Positions 1 through 45,049 of a stretch of 45,569 bases of DNA are shown here, one piece after another. The notes under the pieces were generated by a model. It had not been told where the DNA came from. It was given only the letters and a program-made list of their open reading frames with translations, and did not search any database. Position numbers and translations under genes: made by a program. This stretch comes from a virus. Each line of letters begins with the position of its first letter. Within the stretch, counting starts at the first letter, position 1. The stretch is taken from the IMG/VR virus record IMGVR_UViG_3300046810_000402, positions 1 to 45,569 of that record. One strand, given 5' to 3'.

Positions 1-148
1 CGCCGCCCAGGATCTTCATGAAAGTGGATTTGCCACAGCCGTTGGCGCCGATGAGGCCGTAGCGATTGCCGTTGTTGAATTTGACCGAAACGTTCTCGAA
101 CAGCGGCTTGGCGCCGAACTGCATCGTAATATTTGCTGTGGAAATCAA
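1..148 (-). CDS. ybiT: ABC-F ATPase YbiT, 5' fragment (host gene, runs off window)
   Basis: The complement encodes the first 49 residues of an ABC-F ATPase, starting at TTG (148-146) with [19 protein letters not shown] and reaching a Walker A motif GANGCGKST at the window edge. ABC-F proteins have two ATP-binding domains and act on ribosomes rather than in membranes; YbiT/EttA-type members tune translation. The N-terminus closely matches YbiT-type proteins. The start codon lies inside the phage attachment core, so upstream sequence is now phage DNA: an AGGT-like ribosome site about 8 bases before TTG and the integrase gene beyond it. Native upstream DNA is at the other prophage end, where a 12-codon stub of the same reading frame survives. 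Confidence 0.85.
121..148. other. attL: left attachment site
   Basis: This 28-bp stretch matches 45022-45049 with only 3 mismatches. The last 14 bases, GCTGTGGAAATCAA (135-148), are identical at both ends. The strand-exchange region should lie in that identical core, which overlaps the start codon of ybiT. The neighbouring integrase gene supports the call. Confidence 0.85.
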
Positions 149-6133: not shown

Positions 6134-7507
6134 GTGGCGATTCGGAGATCAATTCAGGGGTTCAGGGCTCAGAGTAAGAGTTTCGCAAATATTCGTTTGG
6201 AAAGAGTTGTTTTCTTCGGTTTCCAGTCAGCAAACCGTATGGCCGAGGTTGTTTTTTCGTCCGAAGCTGCTTCTGTGATCTACGGCGATAATGGTTGTGG
6301 AAAAACCACATTTTTGAAGCTTATACACGCCCTGTTAAAACATGACTCGGCAATTCTCCAAAAAGAAGGAGTGAAGCAAGCCATTGTCGAATATAGAGTA
6401 GATGACGGAGATAAAAAGACAGTAGTTGTTAACAGTTCGCGTACCGAGTACGCGTATGTTTCGGAATCTGCGGAGTCCGAGATGATAATTCATAAAGATG
6501 AATATGACTGGGGTCCTCTAAGCGACTGCGAACTGTCTTCTTCCCGATCCTTGTCGATGGGAGTCGAAAGAGGAACAACCACTTTACCAGCTCGATTGGA
6601 AGTGGATGATATTATTAGGTATATGTCCAATCCCGCTTTTCGCGATATTGCTCGAAATAGGGCTGTAGAGTTTGCCGAGGGTCTAGTCATTCATCTTAGA
6701 AACTTTCAGTCTGTAAGGGCAAGAAGTTCGAGAGAGGGCTTCGATCCTGAAGAGGCTCATCCTTACCTCCAAAACATCAAGATAAGTAATATCGAAGGAT
6801 TGTTGCTTGAGCGATATCGAGTCGCTAAAAGTATCGCAACGAGCAAAATTCAAAATGCTCTGTTTGATACCTTGGCTGTTGCTATCGAGCAAAAGGAACA
6901 GGGAGCCCCGGAGCTACGCGCTATTCCCAAAGATTTTGGGGAACTCATTCTTAGAAGTAAAGAGCGCATAATCGAAGCTTTAAAGGATGGGACTGAAAAT
7001 AAACTAAAAAGCCGTGTTATTAGCTTTTTGGTTGGATTCAAGTCGGCCGATGAAGTTGGTCGTCTTATGGAGAATGATATTCTTTGTCAGCTCATCGTGA
7101 ATATGACGACTGAGTTGCAGATAGAACGACAATTACTAAGCGCTATTAACATTTTTGTAGATACGTTTAACAGTTTTCTTGGTGAAGGGAAAGAGCTCGT
7201 TGTCACGAAGGACGAGTTGTTCATCCTCGTGGAGGGCGATCATCACTCAATCGACGTGCTTTCAAGCGGTGAGCGACATATTTTTACATTCCTTGCGCTG
7301 ATCGTAGTTTCTGGGCGCACTCGCGATTTCATCATTATTGACGAACCTGAAATATCCCTTAATGTGCTATGGCAGAGATCGCTCCTCTCACTGCTAAAGA
7401 CAATCGCTCCAGATACGCAAATTATTGTCGCTTCCCACAGCCCAGCAATTGCGCACGAGAACCCTGCAAGTCTGGTCGAATTGAAACCCAGGAAGAATGC
7501 TCAATGA
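6134..7507 (+). CDS. AriA-like AAA ATPase of a PARIS-like defence pair
   Basis: The 457-residue protein is an SMC/ABC-type AAA ATPase. Walker A GDNGCGKTTF is at about 51-60, a long helical insertion spans about 150-340, the signature LSSGERH follows at about 377, then Walker B FIIIDEPEIS and the switch histidine ASHSPAI near the end. The start is GTG 6134 with GGGAG eight bases upstream. It overlaps the next gene by ATGA. In PARIS, AriA is the sensor ATPase that holds the toxic effector AriB until a phage anti-restriction protein is detected. Gene order, sizes and partner match that system. Base composition is distinctly AT-rich compared with the phage, suggesting recent acquisition. Assignment to PARIS rather than another ATPase/TOPRIM system is inferred. 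Confidence 0.7.
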   Translation: MAIRRSIQGFRAQSKSFANIRLERVVFFGFQSANRMAEVVFSSEAASVIYGDNGCGKTTFLKLIHALLKHDSAILQKEGVKQAIVEYRVDDGDKKTVVVNSSRTEYAYVSESAESEMIIHKDEYDWGPLSDCELSSSRSLSMGVERGTTTLPARLEVDDIIRYMSNPAFRDIARNRAVEFAEGLVIHLRNFQSVRARSSREGFDPEEAHPYLQNIKISNIEGLLLERYRVAKSIATSKIQNALFDTLAVAIEQKEQGAPELRAIPKDFGELILRSKERIIEALKDGTENKLKSRVISFLVGFKSADEVGRLMENDILCQLIVNMTTELQIERQLLSAINIFVDTFNSFLGEGKELVVTKDELFILVEGDHHSIDVLSSGERHIFTFLALIVVSGRTRDFIIIDEPEISLNVLWQRSLLSLLKTIAPDTQIIVASHSPAIAHENPASLVELKPRKNAQ

Positions 7508-8439
7508 CAGGTATGTCAATGATGGTGCCCGATAGTCTTTCATTCAAAGCTATCGAATTACTTAACATGGCAATAATGACAAAGGTCCCCGTCTTAATTG
7601 TAGAAGGGAGGAATGATGTACCGATATTTCAGAGAATATCGCAAAGTATTGGCAAGAGATGTGACGTCTTTGCAAGCGAAAATATCAGTTCTCCAGAAGG
7701 TGGATGCTCTGGAGTTTTAAAGAATATTGCTACCATTAGAGAGTTTTCCACAACTGTTGACATACGCCCTTATGTTTTGGGTATTGTTGATAGGGATGCT
7801 AGGGTTTATCGCGACGAGCAAGTATTCGATGATTCTCTGCTGATGCTGAATTATTATTCGATAGAAAGTCATTTTGTCAGTCAGGAGGCGATTCGGTTCA
7901 TAGTGGAAAAAACTACCAGTGCTACTGGTGCTCTCCTTACTGACGTTAACTGTCAGACTTTATTTGACGAGATCAAGACAGATCTTGATTCGTTGTACTA
8001 CTGTTCACTCGAGGCTCTCAGAAAAGCTTGTGAGGCTGATTATGACGCGGAGCTAACTTACGGCGAAAAGATAAGGTCCATAATCAAACAAGGGAAACCA
8101 GAGAGAGTGTCATGCAAGTCGGCTGAACTCGATGAGTTTGCGAACCGTCTTGGTGTAACTAGGTCGCTTGAGGATCTGTTGCGTATTTGCAAGGGAAAAT
8201 GGATATTTCAGTATTTCGTGGATTCATTAATTACAAAGCTGAATGGTTTGAAGAGTATGTGCAAGGACAATATTCTTGCTCAATGTCAGTACTGCATACA
8301 CGAAGCGTTCCATAATTGCTTGTACTCTTTGACGGCAAATTTTACGAATTCTCAATTGGAGCAGTTATTGTTGCAAGACACGGAGCAAGAAAAGCTTGGT
8401 TATATTAAAAGTCGGATTGCCGAGCTCGCGCAGCGTTGA
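7504..8439 (+). CDS. AriB-like DUF4435/TOPRIM effector
   Basis: The 311-residue product has a TOPRIM-type core. VPVLIVEGRNDVPIF (about 29-43) supplies the E-G-x-x-D box and YVLGIVDRDARVY supplies the acidic D-x-D pair. NYYSIESHFVS matches the 'E-I-E-S/N' helix typical of DUF4435. The rest is helical with several cysteines. ATG 7504 overlaps the ATPase stop, indicating coupled expression. In PARIS the DUF4435 protein is a toxic nuclease cleaving host tRNA after release by AriA; this activity is known for family members and only inferred here. It is AT-rich like its partner. Confidence 0.7.
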   Translation: MTGMSMMVPDSLSFKAIELLNMAIMTKVPVLIVEGRNDVPIFQRISQSIGKRCDVFASENISSPEGGCSGVLKNIATIREFSTTVDIRPYVLGIVDRDARVYRDEQVFDDSLLMLNYYSIESHFVSQEAIRFIVEKTTSATGALLTDVNCQTLFDEIKTDLDSLYYCSLEALRKACEADYDAELTYGEKIRSIIKQGKPERVSCKSAELDEFANRLGVTRSLEDLLRICKGKWIFQYFVDSLITKLNGLKSMCKDNILAQCQYCIHEAFHNCLYSLTANFTNSQLEQLLLQDTEQEKLGYIKSRIAELAQR

Positions 8440-40012: not shown

Positions 40013-40738
40013 TCAGGTTTCCGCTTTTCGAAAACGATCCCCGATGGCCGTTAGCAGATCCGGCAAAAACGACAACACAGCACCATCCTGCTCCCTGATC
40101 CAGCTAAGCATCTTCTCGGGCGTGAAGACCCCTGCGTTGTGTGGCACCTGCTGCAGCTCCGGTATTTCGCCTTTGAACGTGAGCAGCCACCGTTTATTTC
40201 TGAGCAGCGTCAGCGCCATGCCAGACGCCACCCGCTCTTCGGTGATCGGGCTCCACCCGGGAACAACGCCGCCGGCGGCTTTGACTGCACCTCGACAGTC
40301 TGCGAGATATTCGGATGTAAACGCCGCGGCTGTCTCCGACACCGAAGCCTCGTTTAACTCGCCACACGCATCGCGTTTGTTCTGTTTGAACCAGTGCAGC
40401 CACAACGCGTCGTCGCAGCGTTGCTGGTATGCGATGACCTGGTTGCGGATGTGTTGGCAAGCATTGTGAGGCGACAGGGTCATGAGCCATCCAGGCAGCT
40501 TACGCAGTGGTAAACACGGCATCTCTCGACACTCACCAGTCCCGTCAATCAGCGTGAGGTCGACTACTGCAGCTGCAAACCGGCTGGATCTCAGCTTCGC
40601 GCGTTGGCTCTTCCAGTTGAGGCCGATGCCGTCAACCAGCGGGCGCATGGGCACAAATGGATCCCCTCCGTAATCGACCAGGAGCAGTTCGGCGGAGTGG
40701 AAAATGACAGCGCTGGAAATGATCGGTTTCGAATACAT
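40013..40738 (-). CDS. P22-type antirepressor N-terminal domain protein
   Basis: The 241-residue protein has a P22_AR_N-like N-terminus: AVIFHSAELLLVDYGGDPFV, PMRPLVDGIGLNWKSQRAKL, MPCLPLRKLPGWLMTLSPHN. The C-terminal part is helical and not the usual KilAC domain. AAGGA precedes ATG 40738. Antirepressors inactivate a phage repressor; with a CI that looks cleavage-defective, this gene could supply an alternative induction route. That link is inference. Confidence 0.8.
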   Translation of the reverse strand: MYSKPIISSAVIFHSAELLLVDYGGDPFVPMRPLVDGIGLNWKSQRAKLRSSRFAAAVVDLTLIDGTGECREMPCLPLRKLPGWLMTLSPHNACQHIRNQVIAYQQRCDDALWLHWFKQNKRDACGELNEASVSETAAAFTSEYLADCRGAVKAAGGVVPGWSPITEERVASGMALTLLRNKRWLLTFKGEIPELQQVPHNAGVFTPEKMLSWIREQDGAVLSFLPDLLTAIGDRFRKAET

Positions 40739-41309
40739 CGTGGCTTCCTTTTCGGAAATGGAATCGTGAAAGCTGTAACGCTTTCTTAATTTCAGCCTTG
40801 ATGGCGCCGGCTGTTTCGTCAACCAGCGAAGCCCTGCGGGAGTCTGAGACGTTTGCCAACGTTTGGTAGGCGAATTATGTGCAGCCTCAACCGGCAAAAC
40901 ACCGCAGAAGCCGCTCTAACCTGCGGTTGATAGAGAATCCGGGTGACCATTGGCTGAAGCAACGGATATGGGCCAACGGCGAATTGGACTATGCGAAAGT
41001 GTCCGCCGTCAGAGGAATTGTCGGAAGTTTCCGCTGCGGGTATCAGACCTAATGCAGCTATTGATTACTGGTCTTGTCAGCTACAGCCGGCTCAGTGGGT
41101 CCGGCACGCGATTTCTGGCATTGCCCACGGCTTTGCCGAACGGGAACCATTGAAAATCCTGACTAGGGCGGCAGTAGTCTTGTGCGCGCTGGGTTGCCCT
41201 TTCCTTCGACAGGTCTGGATCAAGCCTGAATTTAGCGTAGTGATCGAAAAGACAGCCCGAGCTCGGCGGCACCCCATGCCCGTAGTTTGCTGAGGCCGAT
41301 TCACCGAGG
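40739..41309. other. Gene-free stretch
   Basis: No supported gene in either direction. Open frames here have no ribosome site and no recognisable domain. The segment separates the phage antirepressor gene from the rulB remnant and may itself consist of decayed DNA. Confidence 0.4.
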
Positions 41310-41941: not shown

Positions 41942-42478
41942 TCAGAAGCTTTCAAAAGGGAACGCTGTTTCAATAGCTGAGGACAGCTCATAGAGATCAG
42001 CAAAACCATGTCTCCGTCCTAGTCTAGGTGTCCAGTACCTACCATGCGCGAGCCAATGCCGATAAATTTGAGCCGTTTTAAGTTGTCCGATATAAAGCGT
42101 CGAAGAAGGTGCGTGGTTTTTCCAGACATTTAGTAGATCATCGAACCGGAGCTCTGTTTTGTGCCTGCCGTACAATTTTCGAAAAGCACGACTGAGTGGG
42201 TCCTTTAATTTTTTATCAACTCTCGCGAGATAGTCTATTCTAAATCGCGCTTCCAGCGCGGAGAGCACGGTCAAACAAGTAGATGTTTCAAATTCGTCAG
42301 CTTCTTTCTTATAAGCATCCATCACATGTTGATTGGAGGAGAAGCCAAACCTTTCGAGATAAGCGTCGCTTCCACCTAAATAAAAAGTCCCTATTGAAGT
42401 TCGTACGCTTTCATAATATTCTGAGATTTCTTTATATTTTAGATTTAGTCCTGAGGGATGAAAGCCGATCCTACTCAT
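41942..42478 (-). CDS. HEPN-domain RNase-like protein
   Basis: The 178-residue helical protein has the HEPN hallmark R-x4-H in YRHWLAHGRYW near residue 150, plus a conserved central helix ETSTCLTVLSALEARFRIDY. This resembles RiboL-PSP/MAE-type HEPN proteins. HEPN toxins cut RNA, usually in defence or toxin-antitoxin systems. ATG 42478 follows GGAG by five bases and overlaps the upstream stop (ATGA), so the two genes form an operon. AT-rich. Specific RNA target unknown. Confidence 0.75.
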   Translation of the reverse strand: MSRIGFHPSGLNLKYKEISEYYESVRTSIGTFYLGGSDAYLERFGFSSNQHVMDAYKKEADEFETSTCLTVLSALEARFRIDYLARVDKKLKDPLSRAFRKLYGRHKTELRFDDLLNVWKNHAPSSTLYIGQLKTAQIYRHWLAHGRYWTPRLGRRHGFADLYELSSAIETAFPFESF

Positions 42479-43020
42479 GCCAGCTCCATAATCAAATTTT
42501 GGAAGCTTTCTTGCTCTAAGTTGGTGAATTTGTACGGTGGCTTCGCGGACAGAATTACCCACCGCCATGGAAGTTCGTCTTCAGGCGAGTGTGTAATAGC
42601 AGGTGCAGGTGTAGGTGCAGTTGCCTTGCCATCATTAATAGATACCGTTACCTTGATTCTGGGGCCGTCGCCTTTGATAAGCGCAACAGATCTAGTGCCC
42701 TTGGGCCCAATGATGTCTACACGTCCTTTGGAACCTATAAGCATAGTGCCTACCGGTGAAAATAGAAATTTAATATTTCCTATTTTTAGGGTGGCGCTAT
42801 TGACTTGGTAGGATCCTAGCGATTCCTCTTGGATTGTCACAGGGTAGTAAGTTAGTTCCGTGGACCCTTCCATGATGAACGGGTGTAGGTAAGAACGAAT
42901 TTTTGCGTAAAGATCTTCAAGAAGAGTAATCCACTCATGAATTTGTTCTTCAGGATCAAACTTTACAGAAGAAAGCGAATTCTTTTCGTTCACGAAGTCG
43001 CTAAAGCTTTTTTTAGTCAT
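42475..43020 (-). CDS. Uncharacterised partner of the HEPN protein
   Basis: The 181-residue protein starts at ATG 43020 (GGAG upstream): MTKKSFSDFVNEKNSLSSVK. It has a helical N-terminal half and a beta-rich middle TLKIGNIKFLFSPVGTMLIG then RVDIIGPKGTRSVAL, and a Pro/Ala linker before WRWVILSAKPPYKFTN. The 'GRVDIIGPKG' pattern recalls uncharacterised bacterial proteins. It is not a MNT nucleotidyltransferase, the classical HEPN antitoxin. Coupled overlap with the HEPN gene suggests an antitoxin, sensor or adaptor. Confidence 0.65.
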   Translation of the reverse strand: MTKKSFSDFVNEKNSLSSVKFDPEEQIHEWITLLEDLYAKIRSYLHPFIMEGSTELTYYPVTIQEESLGSYQVNSATLKIGNIKFLFSPVGTMLIGSKGRVDIIGPKGTRSVALIKGDGPRIKVTVSINDGKATAPTPAPAITHSPEDELPWRWVILSAKPPYKFTNLEQESFQNLIMELA

Positions 43021-43354
43021 TGAAATCTCCAAGCATGTAGTGGCAAGGTAGGCGCCAGAAGATTTTGTGTCCGGCGCGGTCAGTCCCGTTATTTTCCAGA
43101 AATGAATGGAAGCAGACGGAGTGCTGTCGTGCGAGAATTTTAGAACAATTATCATCGCCAGGCTACTTTTTCGGAAAAAAGCAATATTGCAGGATGACGA
43201 TTTCCCGCATTGGAGACAACTTTTTTAATGAGCTAAATGAGTTAGGATGTCGTGAGTGTCGCTTCGCATGAAGCGCTGCGCACCAAAGATTTTTAGTCTA
43301 CAAGGCATGAGGATCAGAGATGATCCCCGCTACCGTAGTCTAGTCAGACGATTG
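43021..43354. other. Intergenic region between HEPN operon and FRG gene
   Basis: No supported gene. It should contain the promoter of the leftward HEPN operon. A small rightward frame at 43190-43270 was considered but lacks support. AT-rich with a CGCTTCGC-ATG-AAGCG-like hairpin near 43259. Confidence 0.4.
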
Positions 43355-44263
43355 TTATGGCAAGTACCCAGATCGATCCTTCAGAGACTGAGCCACTCCG
43401 GCATAGCCGGGAAATATCCGTCCTGCTGTGTATCCTATCTTTGACAGAAATTTGCGAAGTCGCGGAGCTTGGCTTGCCGGCAATTTAAGCTTTGTTAGTA
43501 TGTTGGCATCCCCGATTGTTGAGCTTTTAGAAAAGTGAGTTTTAAGTAAATCATCCAGTGGGGTTCTGTCAATTCGAGTGTCGTTATTAAGATGTGAGTA
43601 CGAGAGAAAGTTTTTTATGTTTCTTTCCCAGTGGGTGAAAAGACCTGACTGCGCCGCAATATTCGGATTCCCGGAATAGTGAGGGTGTATAAATCTTAAG
43701 TTGGATTTATGGACGTGATCTTGTAATGTTATGTAGTCTTTATTTAGGCACCATAATGACAGGTTTCCATTGTGTAAGCCTCCTGTAGACGAAAAAAATG
43801 CAGCAATGTATGGGTTATAGCTCCAATCTAGGAGGCGAGTAGGAAGTCCATAATGCTGCGCAAGAGCGGCGACTTCAAGAAGTTCTTCAGTAATCCATCC
43901 GCCAGTGTATTCGACCATGGAGTAATCCATAGTTGACGCGAGTTGACGCCTGATCGAAGATGAAGTAGGTACCTGCATTCCTTGTGCGTCCGCAAGTCTG
44001 TAAAAGTCGCGAATGGTCCGAAATTCGGCCATCACAGAAATGCTTTCGTCATCGATCCATTCTGAATGAACAGTAGCTCCGGCTAGTGCATGTAGCTCTT
44101 CAGTCTTTTCCGCCCGCAGTGCAACAGGTAAAAGTTTGAATGTGTCATCTGAGTGACCGCGAAATATATATCCTTCAAGGTTGGTTGTGGCAGACCAAGG
44201 TGTTATTGCTTGTAAAAAATCTTCTGCGAGCTCGAACGAAAATTCTTGGTAAAACTTATCCAT
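43355..44263 (-). CDS. FRG-domain protein (candidate defence effector)
   Basis: The 302-residue protein carries the FRG domain: GYIFRGHSDDTFKLLPVALR (residues 32-51), AALAQHYGLPTRLLDWSYNP and YIAAFFSS, with NPNIAAQSGLFTHW later. The motif F-R-G names the family; FRG proteins occur widely in phages and defence islands and their biochemistry is poorly known. Start taken as ATG 44263; ATG 44299 adds 12 residues. No strong ribosome site is visible for either. AT-rich like the HEPN pair and in the same orientation. Confidence 0.75.
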   Translation of the reverse strand: MDKFYQEFSFELAEDFLQAITPWSATTNLEGYIFRGHSDDTFKLLPVALRAEKTEELHALAGATVHSEWIDDESISVMAEFRTIRDFYRLADAQGMQVPTSSSIRRQLASTMDYSMVEYTGGWITEELLEVAALAQHYGLPTRLLDWSYNPYIAAFFSSTGGLHNGNLSLWCLNKDYITLQDHVHKSNLRFIHPHYSGNPNIAAQSGLFTHWERNIKNFLSYSHLNNDTRIDRTPLDDLLKTHFSKSSTIGDANILTKLKLPASQAPRLRKFLSKIGYTAGRIFPGYAGVAQSLKDRSGYLP

Positions 44264-45013: not shown

Positions 45014-45049
45014 CTAAGACCGCATCGTGATGTTAGCTGTGGAAATCAA
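45014..45049 (-). pseudogene. ybiT: Displaced 12-codon start of ybiT
   Basis: Reading leftward from TTG 45049, ISTANITM then RS and TAG: the first nine codons match the ybiT start at the other prophage end. AGGATAAGCAA before the TTG is a good ribosome site and is probably the native one. The host's own upstream signals therefore now drive only this stub. Confidence 0.65.
45022..45049. other. attR: right attachment site
   Basis: Direct repeat of 121-148 with 25 of 28 identities and a perfect 14-bp core GCTGTGGAAATCAA (45036-45049). It closes the prophage at about 44.9 kb. Confidence 0.85.

What the first reader, a model, noticed from the sequence alone, without database searches (positions are those of the whole stretch)
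41942..44263. Right-end cargo: HEPN protein, unknown partner and FRG protein as a possible new defence system
Three leftward AT-rich genes sit next to attR, the usual place for phage cargo. Two are coupled by ATGA overlap. One has a HEPN R-x4-H RNase motif, its partner is not a known HEPN antitoxin (no MNT motif), and an FRG-domain protein follows in the same orientation. HEPN and FRG proteins both recur in defence contexts, but I know of no named system built from this pair of genes.
Basis: partly seen in the sequence, partly recalled or inferred. Interest (0 to 1): 0.8.

Follow-up and report, generated by a model that had tools for sequence, protein, structure and literature searches.

The report
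Two-gene HEPN toxin and chaperone-like partner
Next to one end of this prophage sit two overlapping genes, a predicted RNA-cutting toxin and a small protein that probably holds it in check; the same pair travels together through many kinds of bacteria, belongs to no named family I could find, and may be an unrecognised toxin-antitoxin or phage-defence module.

Summary
In detail: three leftward, AT-rich genes lie beside a putative attR; the first two overlap by ATGA. The HEPN gene and its 181-aa partner are a real, conserved two-gene module. Of 116 HEPN-family loci found by motif in genome contigs, 106 of the 108 with enough upstream sequence carry the partner just upstream; the two exceptions are HEPN fragments. 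Viral contigs: 9 of 9. The two proteins co-diverge (r 0.71; permutation maximum 0.17) and span nine named phyla. Four divergent partner relatives are each followed by another HEPN-type R-x4-H protein. A relative's HEPN models like HepT; the partner models (pLDDT 89) as a five-stranded meander with helices, somewhat like T3SS/YbjN chaperones, not MNT. The window's two proteins match no Pfam, NCBIfam, PADLOC or PHROG family. FRG is not part of it (no hit in 139 loci). Partners occur alone; intact HEPN without partner was not seen. This best fits a toxin-antitoxin pair, HEPN RNase neutralised by a chaperone-like partner, possibly antiviral. Toxicity, neutralisation and defence are untested.

The parts
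41942..42478 (-). HEPN protein, 178 aa, R-x4-H (RHWLAHGRYW); predicted RNase toxin/effector
   Evidence: HEPN of family member L019 models like HepT toxins
42475..43020 (-). partner, 181 aa; predicted alpha/beta chaperone-like (TY-like) protein; proposed antitoxin/regulator
   Evidence: linkage
42475..42478 (-). ATGA overlap of partner stop and HEPN start (likely translational coupling)
   Evidence: read
43021..43354 (-). 334-nt intergenic leader of the pair: GGAG 6 nt before the partner ATG; one terminator-like hairpin (43209-43188); such hairpins are not above chance in the region
43355..44263 (-). FRG-domain protein, 302 aa; neighbour, not part of the two-gene module
118..148 (.). putative attL copy of an imperfect 31-nt direct repeat
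45019..45049 (.). putative attR copy of the same repeat (27/31)

Best explanation
A mobile two-gene toxin-antitoxin-type module. The downstream gene makes a HEPN RNase (R-x4-H) that would cut RNA as a dimer and stop translation. The upstream gene, overlapping it, makes a small chaperone-like alpha/beta protein that binds the HEPN protein and keeps it inactive until a trigger (phage infection, loss of the element, or stress) frees it. Shown here: the genes, their overlap, conserved linkage, co-divergence, patchy spread across phyla, R-x4-H, the HepT-like model of a relative's HEPN and the non-MNT model of the partner. Inferred: RNase activity (from the superfamily), binding and neutralisation, trigger, antiviral role.
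For: Linkage: 106 of 108 genome loci with >=600 nt upstream, and 9 of 9 viral loci, have the partner upstream on the same strand; the HEPN match starts within -20..+70 nt of the partner's stop in 112 of 115 loci. Reverse test: a partner DNA motif in viral contigs gave 20 stretches, 9 true partners, 9 of 9 with HEPN downstream (8 of these 9 were already in the first set). HEPN profile in 398 Pseudomonadaceae genomes: 3 hits, 3 of 3 beside a strong partner hit (one is the centre genome, chosen because it has the pair). Divergent partner relatives L137, L138, L177, L178, found by partner profile: 4 of 4 followed by another HEPN-type protein with R-x4-H; the same scan gave 0 of 8 solo Pseudomonas paralogues (8 of the 17 fetched) and 0 of 2 orphans. 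Co-divergence r=0.71, maximum of 1,000 permutations 0.17. Asymmetry: partners without HEPN exist (L004, L172, L174, Pseudomonas solos); HEPN without partner was seen only as fragments (L048, L075). HEPN half of the L019 model: rows 1-9 are HepT-type or related HEPN proteins, Z 7.8-9.2; Cas13b 6.8 and LsoA 5.2 also appear. Mobile carriers: IMG/VR contigs and Klebsiella ColRNAI plasmids.
Against: No toxicity, binding or phage data. The read-through model gives no reliable interface (pTM 0.64). Partner-profile matches occur in 82 of 398 Pseudomonadaceae genomes, 79 of them weaker than 1e-30, and the visible ones lack HEPN, so the domain also works alone and could be a sensor or regulator rather than a plain antitoxin. 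HepT Z-scores of 8-9 are below the tool's caution level (13) for helical bundles, and Foldseek gave nothing at E<=0.001. Neighbours show no clear defence-island signature. R-x4-H invariance within the motif-found set is by selection, and L138 and L178 were recognised as HEPN partly by the motif itself. Eight motif loci cut off upstream could not be judged.
Confidence: 0.6

Rival explanations
1. A sensor-effector immune pair rather than a classical toxin-antitoxin: the partner recognises a phage product (or a misfolded or modified protein) and switches on the HEPN RNase; HEPN alone is inactive.
For: Partner resembles, weakly, peptide-binding TY-chaperones reported in conflict systems (PMC9503650, section 3.8); strongly conserved E65, G69, Y71, P89, G91, G99, R100, D102, W154 suggest a binding site; copies on viral contigs; some neighbours match defence models (DarG, PtuA, AbiP2, Cmr).
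Against: No intact HEPN without partner was seen, which fits protection from a harmful protein at least as well; no defence enrichment shown; no trigger known.
Confidence: 0.25
2. Plasmid/prophage maintenance (addiction) module with no antiviral role.
For: A Klebsiella copy sits on a 4,655-bp non-mobilizable ColRNAI plasmid with six annotated genes, two of them the pair; partner-first overlapping order; prophage location.
Against: Copies also lie on chromosomal contigs beside ordinary metabolic genes, where plasmid addiction has little meaning.
Confidence: 0.25
3. A three-gene HEPN-partner-FRG defence system.
For: Same strand, same low GC (43-44%), adjacent; FRG matches a PADLOC phage-defence candidate family.
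Against: FRG absent by tblastn from 139 loci around the pair; 334-nt gap; the six phage records with an FRG relative gave no match to HEPN or partner.
Confidence: 0.03
4. Housekeeping RNA-processing pair, not a conflict module.
For: Wide phylum spread.
Against: Rare and patchy: non-centre partner hits under 1e-30 in 2 of 398 Pseudomonadaceae and 2 of 398 Bacilli genomes; phyla intermixed in the tree (19 label changes, least possible 8); carriage on viral contigs and plasmids.
Confidence: 0.04

Closest known systems
HEPN/MNT (HepT/MntA, type VII toxin-antitoxin)
   Same: Two small adjacent genes; HEPN toxin with R-x4-H; the HEPN half of the L019 model is closest to HepT-type chains in the PDB (Z 7.8-9.2); one of 77 members matches NCBIfam HepT_toxin at 3.8e-5.
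   Different: Partner is not a nucleotidyltransferase: no such Pfam match at E<=0.01 in 77 members, a five-stranded meander model, no conserved GS...DxD; so AMPylation is not the expected mode of neutralisation.
RnlA/RnlB and LsoA/LsoB (HEPN RNase with protein antitoxin)
   Same: HEPN-type RNase with a dedicated protein partner; LsoA appears at Z 5.2.
   Different: Here HEPN is a minimal 178-aa protein; RnlA has extra domains (recalled). Similarity of the partner to RnlB was not tested.
TY-chaperones (T3SS chaperone / YbjN-like) of ARG-centred conflict systems (PMC9503650, section 3.8 read)
   Same: Five-stranded beta-meander flanked by helices; DR_1245 (a YbjN-family protein) among the top matches, Z 5.4, rmsd 2.6 over 82 residues.
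   Different: Those systems centre on ADP-ribosylglycohydrolases; the section read names no HEPN partner. The fold match is weak.
RiboL-PSP-HEPN and other HEPN families of Anantharaman 2013 (PMC3710099, abstract and passages read)
   Same: R-x4-H HEPN proteins.
   Different: Only 1 of 77 members matches Pfam HEPN_RiboL-PSP, at 0.0069, and L178's divergent HEPN at 0.047, below the cut-off; the Table 1 passages shown name no operon with a partner of this kind.
PDC-S15 (PADLOC FRG candidate)
   Same: The neighbouring FRG protein matches it (5e-33).
   Different: A separate gene, not found beside the HEPN pair elsewhere.

Membership tests
HEPN superfamily | R-x4-6-H active-site motif | tested here: met
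   RHWLAH in the window; present in 7 of 7 members found by similarity, partner or profile rather than the motif (Klebsiella, L150, L152, L153, L173 and the weak profile matches L137, L177); L138 (motif in another frame) and L178 were recognised partly by the motif
HEPN superfamily | alpha-helical HEPN fold | tested here: met
   Family member L019, modelled in a read-through chain: rows 1-9 are HepT-type or related, Z 7.8-9.2, above other helical rows (5.8 and less) apart from HEPN-bearing Cas13b (6.8); still under the tool's caution level for helical bundles, and Foldseek's E for HepT 7ae8 is only 1.4. The window's own HEPN was not modelled.
HEPN superfamily | RNase activity | not testable with these tools
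   -
HEPN/MNT toxin-antitoxin (type VII) | partner is an MNT nucleotidyltransferase (GS...DxD, motif recalled) | tested here: not met
   no nucleotidyltransferase match at E<=0.01 among 77 partners; consensus IGAKGRVD lacks a conserved GS and a DxD; model is a beta-meander
TY-chaperone (T3SS/YbjN) fold | five-stranded meander flanked by helices on one face | tested here: inconclusive
   order of elements fits, packing face not examined; best YbjN-type match DR_1245 Z 5.4; Nqo15 6.9 and MED17 6.2 rank higher
Type II-like toxin-antitoxin module | two small adjacent or overlapping genes, conserved as a pair | tested here: met
Type II-like toxin-antitoxin module | toxicity of one product, neutralised by binding of the other | not testable with these tools
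   read-through co-model gave no reliable interface (pTM 0.64)
Known anti-phage system (PADLOC 2023 models) | match to a catalogued component | tested here: not met
   P0001 and P0002: 0 families at E<=10; of 77 HEPN members, 1 at 5.9e-4 to PDC-M28A and 1 at 6.5e-4 to Cas1; partner members other than P0002 were not scanned in PADLOC
PDC-S15 / FRG (neighbour gene) | FRG domain | tested here: met
   Pfam FRG 2.5e-17, PDC-S15 5e-33

The most novel reading that the evidence does not exclude
A previously undescribed, phylum-crossing class of HEPN immunity modules in which a TY-chaperone-like protein, not an MNT enzyme or a nucleic-acid ligand, is the lock and phage sensor of the RNase; further HEPN lineages (L137; and L138/L177/L178, grouped by eye) have been recruited to the same kind of partner, so the partner, not the toxin, defines the class.
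Probability: 0.3. Interest if true: 0.78.

Novelty: new variant of a known kind. Interest (0 to 1): 0.6.

Why it matters
HEPN RNases are effectors of many immune and toxin-antitoxin systems, and partner types known so far lock them in different ways (AMPylation by MntA, retron complexes, RnlB). Here a partner family outside the curated libraries searched, with a likely chaperone-like fold, is tied to several HEPN lineages across many phyla. If it is the lock, it adds a new mode of HEPN control; the small size (about 1.1 kb) makes it directly testable in laboratory strains, and a profile made from these alignments would let annotation tools find it.

Tried and rejected
FRG as a third component: rejected for lack of co-occurrence. 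MNT antitoxin: rejected on sequence and model. Known families: single-sequence scans of both window proteins in Pfam, PADLOC, PHROGs, NCBIfam gave nothing; scans of 77 HEPN members in Pfam, PADLOC, NCBIfam and 77 partner members in Pfam, NCBIfam gave only stray matches. PDB sequence searches gave nothing convincing. Phage records: no tblastn match for either protein, and no megablast match for window 21001-45569. The search for related loci with single proteins and with two- or four-row alignments found nothing in viral contigs; a DNA pattern for the motif worked. E. coli complete genomes: no near match of the Klebsiella pair. BFVD fold search of the partner: no E<=0.001. The PDB searches of the partner show no family at a trustworthy level; absence there is not proof of a new fold.

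Defence-island test: 148 flanking proteins (of 169 selected; from 91 of 116 loci; genes taken as longest non-overlapping ORFs, so some may be spurious) were scanned. The commonest Pfam families were in 3 of 148, the commonest PADLOC family (DarG) in 3 of 148, and only the first 25 families are listed. No matched control was run, so this neither shows nor excludes enrichment.

Rows dropped before counts: linkage counts exclude 4 of 120 genome stretches without HEPN (L032, L042, L120, L131), 1 of 10 viral stretches (L011), and 8 genome loci with under 100 nt upstream. Alignments A3/A4 use 76 of 88 well-covered loci, redundancy-filtered, plus the window. 14 of 77 tree rows had no phylum. Six loci have HEPN split over two frames (L017, L018, L038, L055, L065, L071) and were counted as HEPN. 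Two weak partner-profile hits were set aside: L139 (3.8e-4, looks to me like an unrelated signalling protein) and L175 (a partner fragment with a stop inside, no HEPN). One search's output was cut, so neighbours of L161-L166 were not seen.

Literature: search listings only; abstract and passages of PMC3710099, passages of PMC13092281, PMC9503650 with its section 3.8 (100), PMC7159879 (101, reference list only), PMC13405049 (126, a preprint). 'No such system in print' rests on these ten searches of open-access papers only. The meaning of 'PDC' (phage-defence candidate) and of the PARIS/Ari names is recalled.
Full report
WHAT IS THERE. The window is an IMG/VR virus record with an integrase at its left end (169-1362). 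An imperfect 31-nt direct repeat (27/31) lies at 118-148 and 45019-45049, so the right-hand genes sit just inside a putative attR. Three leftward genes are there: FRG (43355-44263), partner (42475-43020) and HEPN (41942-42478). Partner and HEPN overlap by ATGA; 334 nt separate FRG from the partner. The pair is 43.3% GC and FRG 44.2%, against 56.5% for the window. The HEPN protein carries RHWLAHGRYW near its C-terminus. P0001 (HEPN) and P0002 (partner) match nothing in Pfam, PADLOC, PHROGs or NCBIfam at E<=10.

FIRST RELATIVES. tblastn against plasmids found HEPN in 18 records and the partner in 20; Klebsiella (17) and Raoultella (1) account for 18 records in each. In the two records opened the genes are side by side in the same order. 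On NZ_CP092518 (4,655 bp, ColRNAI) the pair is two of six annotated genes. HEPN identity is 36.7% over residues 62-176, and the motif is identical. Two further partner relatives, in Rhizobium (L004) and Aneurinibacillus (L005), have no HEPN beside them.

LINKAGE TEST, HEPN TO PARTNER. A back-translated R[HN]WxAHGRY pattern was scanned without reference to the partner. Viral contigs: 10 stretches, 9 of the HEPN family, 9 of 9 with the partner upstream. In 112 of 115 loci the HEPN match starts within -20 to +70 nt of the partner's stop. Six HEPN genes are split over two frames.

LINKAGE TEST, PARTNER TO HEPN. A partner DNA motif in viral contigs gave 20 stretches, 9 true partners, all 9 with HEPN downstream; 8 of these were already known and one (L150) is new. 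The partner profile was then run on whole genomes: 4 of 369 Gammaproteobacteria, 82 of 398 Pseudomonadaceae, 5 of 398 Bacilli, 3 of 385 Alphaproteobacteria; each count includes the centre genome, chosen because it has the pair. Non-centre hits under 1e-30 are L152, L153 and L173, with HEPN, and L172, without. Of the 82 Pseudomonadaceae genomes 79 have only weaker hits; the loci whose output was visible are solo genes with no HEPN match (L161-L166 were cut from view, and hits beyond the 20 fetched loci were not read). Four weaker hits, L137, L138, L177 and L178, are each followed directly by a different HEPN-type protein with R-x4-H (YRDWMAH, TRNSIAH, LRNELAH, VRNQVAH). In L138 the motif lies in another frame, and L138 and L178 were recognised as HEPN partly by the motif. 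The same scan gave 0 of 8 Pseudomonas solos (of 17 fetched) and nothing for L172 and L174; in L004 it hit only a frame full of stops. L175, a Bacilli partner fragment with a stop inside, has no HEPN, and L139 looks like a chance match. The HEPN profile on 398 Pseudomonadaceae genomes gave 3 hits, all beside a strong partner hit.

So the partner can live without HEPN, while intact HEPN was not seen without partner. This is what an antitoxin and a toxin would do; it is an inference, since the searches were not exhaustive.

CO-EVOLUTION AND SPREAD. Distances among 77 HEPN and 77 partner proteins from the same loci correlate at r=0.71; the maximum of 1,000 permutations is 0.17. Shared organism history alone also raises such a value. 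The HEPN tree mixes phyla: 19 label changes against a minimum of 8 (shuffled mean 24.4; 14 rows without a phylum left out); 31 of 74 inner branches are weak. Phyla named there: Pseudomonadota, Thermodesulfobacteriota, Bacillota, Acidobacteriota, Planctomycetota, Bacteroidota, Cyanobacteriota, Myxococcota and Latescibacterota. The nearest relatives of the window pair among those compared are L152 (HEPN 51%, partner 47%) and L150 (49%, 47%). This rare, scattered distribution fits a mobile conflict module.

STRUCTURE. The partner was modelled from the window sequence with 76 aligned rows: pLDDT 89.1, pTM 0.77; two helices, five strands in a row (54-116), further strands and a C-terminal helix. 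Foldseek against PDB: nothing at E<=0.001. Second look: Nqo15 Z 6.9, MED17 C-terminal region 6.2, DR_1245 (YbjN family) 5.4 with rmsd 2.6 over 82 residues, all under the level at which a match can be trusted. The arrangement resembles the T3SS/YbjN 'TY-chaperones' described in conflict systems (PMC9503650 section 3.8). Conserved residues are Y71, P89, R100 and W154 (77 of 77) and E65, G69, G91, G99 and D102 (76 of 77). A read-through chain of L019 (partner, stop read as Gly, HEPN) gave pLDDT 92.0 but pTM 0.64, so the domains are good and their mutual position is not. Its HEPN half matches HepT-type or related HEPN structures in the first nine rows (Z 7.8-9.2), then Cas13b 6.8 and LsoA 5.2. These Z values are modest for helical bundles, but the best matches are specific to HEPN proteins. 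Over 77 members each, best stray matches are HepT-like 0.0077 (2 members) and HEPN_RiboL-PSP 0.0069 (1 member) in Pfam, HepT_toxin 3.8e-5 (1 member) in NCBIfam, and none for the partner in NCBIfam.

CONTEXT. 148 flanking proteins from 91 loci show no shared third gene among the families listed: the commonest Pfam families are in 3 of 148. PADLOC matches at E<=1e-10 include DarG (3) and single PtuA, AbiP2 and Cmr proteins. This is mixed and without a control, so it does not prove a defence role.

FRG. It matches Pfam FRG (2.5e-17) and PADLOC PDC-S15 (5e-33). It has about 26% identical relatives in Salmonella phage SEN8 and Acinetobacter phages. No FRG was found by tblastn or by signature in 139 loci (997,572 bases) around the pair. 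It is best seen as a second, independent cargo gene; FRG domains are placed in the ART superfamily and said to be possible NADases in PMC9503650 (passages).

MECHANISM. Most likely the HEPN dimer is an endoRNase (superfamily knowledge, PMC3710099, abstract and passages) and the partner, encoded first and overlapping, binds it. The MNT route (AMPylation of HepT, PMC7641770, abstract start in the listing only) is unlikely, because the partner lacks the nucleotidyltransferase signature and its model has another topology. Whether release is triggered by phage, by loss of the element or by stress is open. Sensor-effector immunity is the main rival.

NOVELTY. HEPN effectors with protein partners are known, so this is a new variant of a known kind. 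The partner family, its link to several HEPN lineages and its phylum-wide spread did not show up in ten searches of open-access papers, nor in the curated libraries. DefensePredictor (PMC13092281, passages) reports four validated systems with HEPN domains; the passages describe one (DS-11, a one-protein CBS-HEPN) and I could not compare the others, so one of them might be related.

Noticed in passing
window 6134-7507 (+) and 7369-8439 (+): AAA ATPase with best PADLOC match AriA (1.7e-25) followed by a gene matching AriB (7.5e-11): a PARIS-like defence pair in an AT-rich stretch of the left arm.
   Followed up: no
window 43355-44263 (-): FRG / PDC-S15 protein as an independent cargo gene; relatives in Salmonella phage SEN8 and Acinetobacter phages.
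   Followed up: partly
L154-L170 (Pseudomonadaceae genomes): Solo chromosomal genes related to the partner, without HEPN in the loci seen; partner-profile matches in 82 of 398 genomes. Their function is unknown and could reveal what the partner domain binds.
   Followed up: partly
L137:978-1556, L138:1881-2273, L177:1906-2361, L178 about 929-1378: Further HEPN-type proteins downstream of divergent partners, with no Pfam match above cut-off for the three tested, L137, L177 and L178.
   Followed up: partly
L002 (NZ_CP092518.1), 1800-2910; L003: The pair makes up two of six annotated genes of a small Klebsiella ColRNAI plasmid and also lies on a 173-kb IncFIB plasmid; further Klebsiella records match.
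   Followed up: partly
L008, L012 (umuC-like), L009, L010, L012 (SRAP/yedK-like): Several viral-contig copies sit beside SOS-response genes (read by eye; IMS_C and SRAP each in 2 of 148 neighbours); may hint at SOS control.
   Followed up: no
window 40013-40846 (-): P22_AR_N antirepressor-like protein just left of the cargo (1.5e-32).
   Followed up: no
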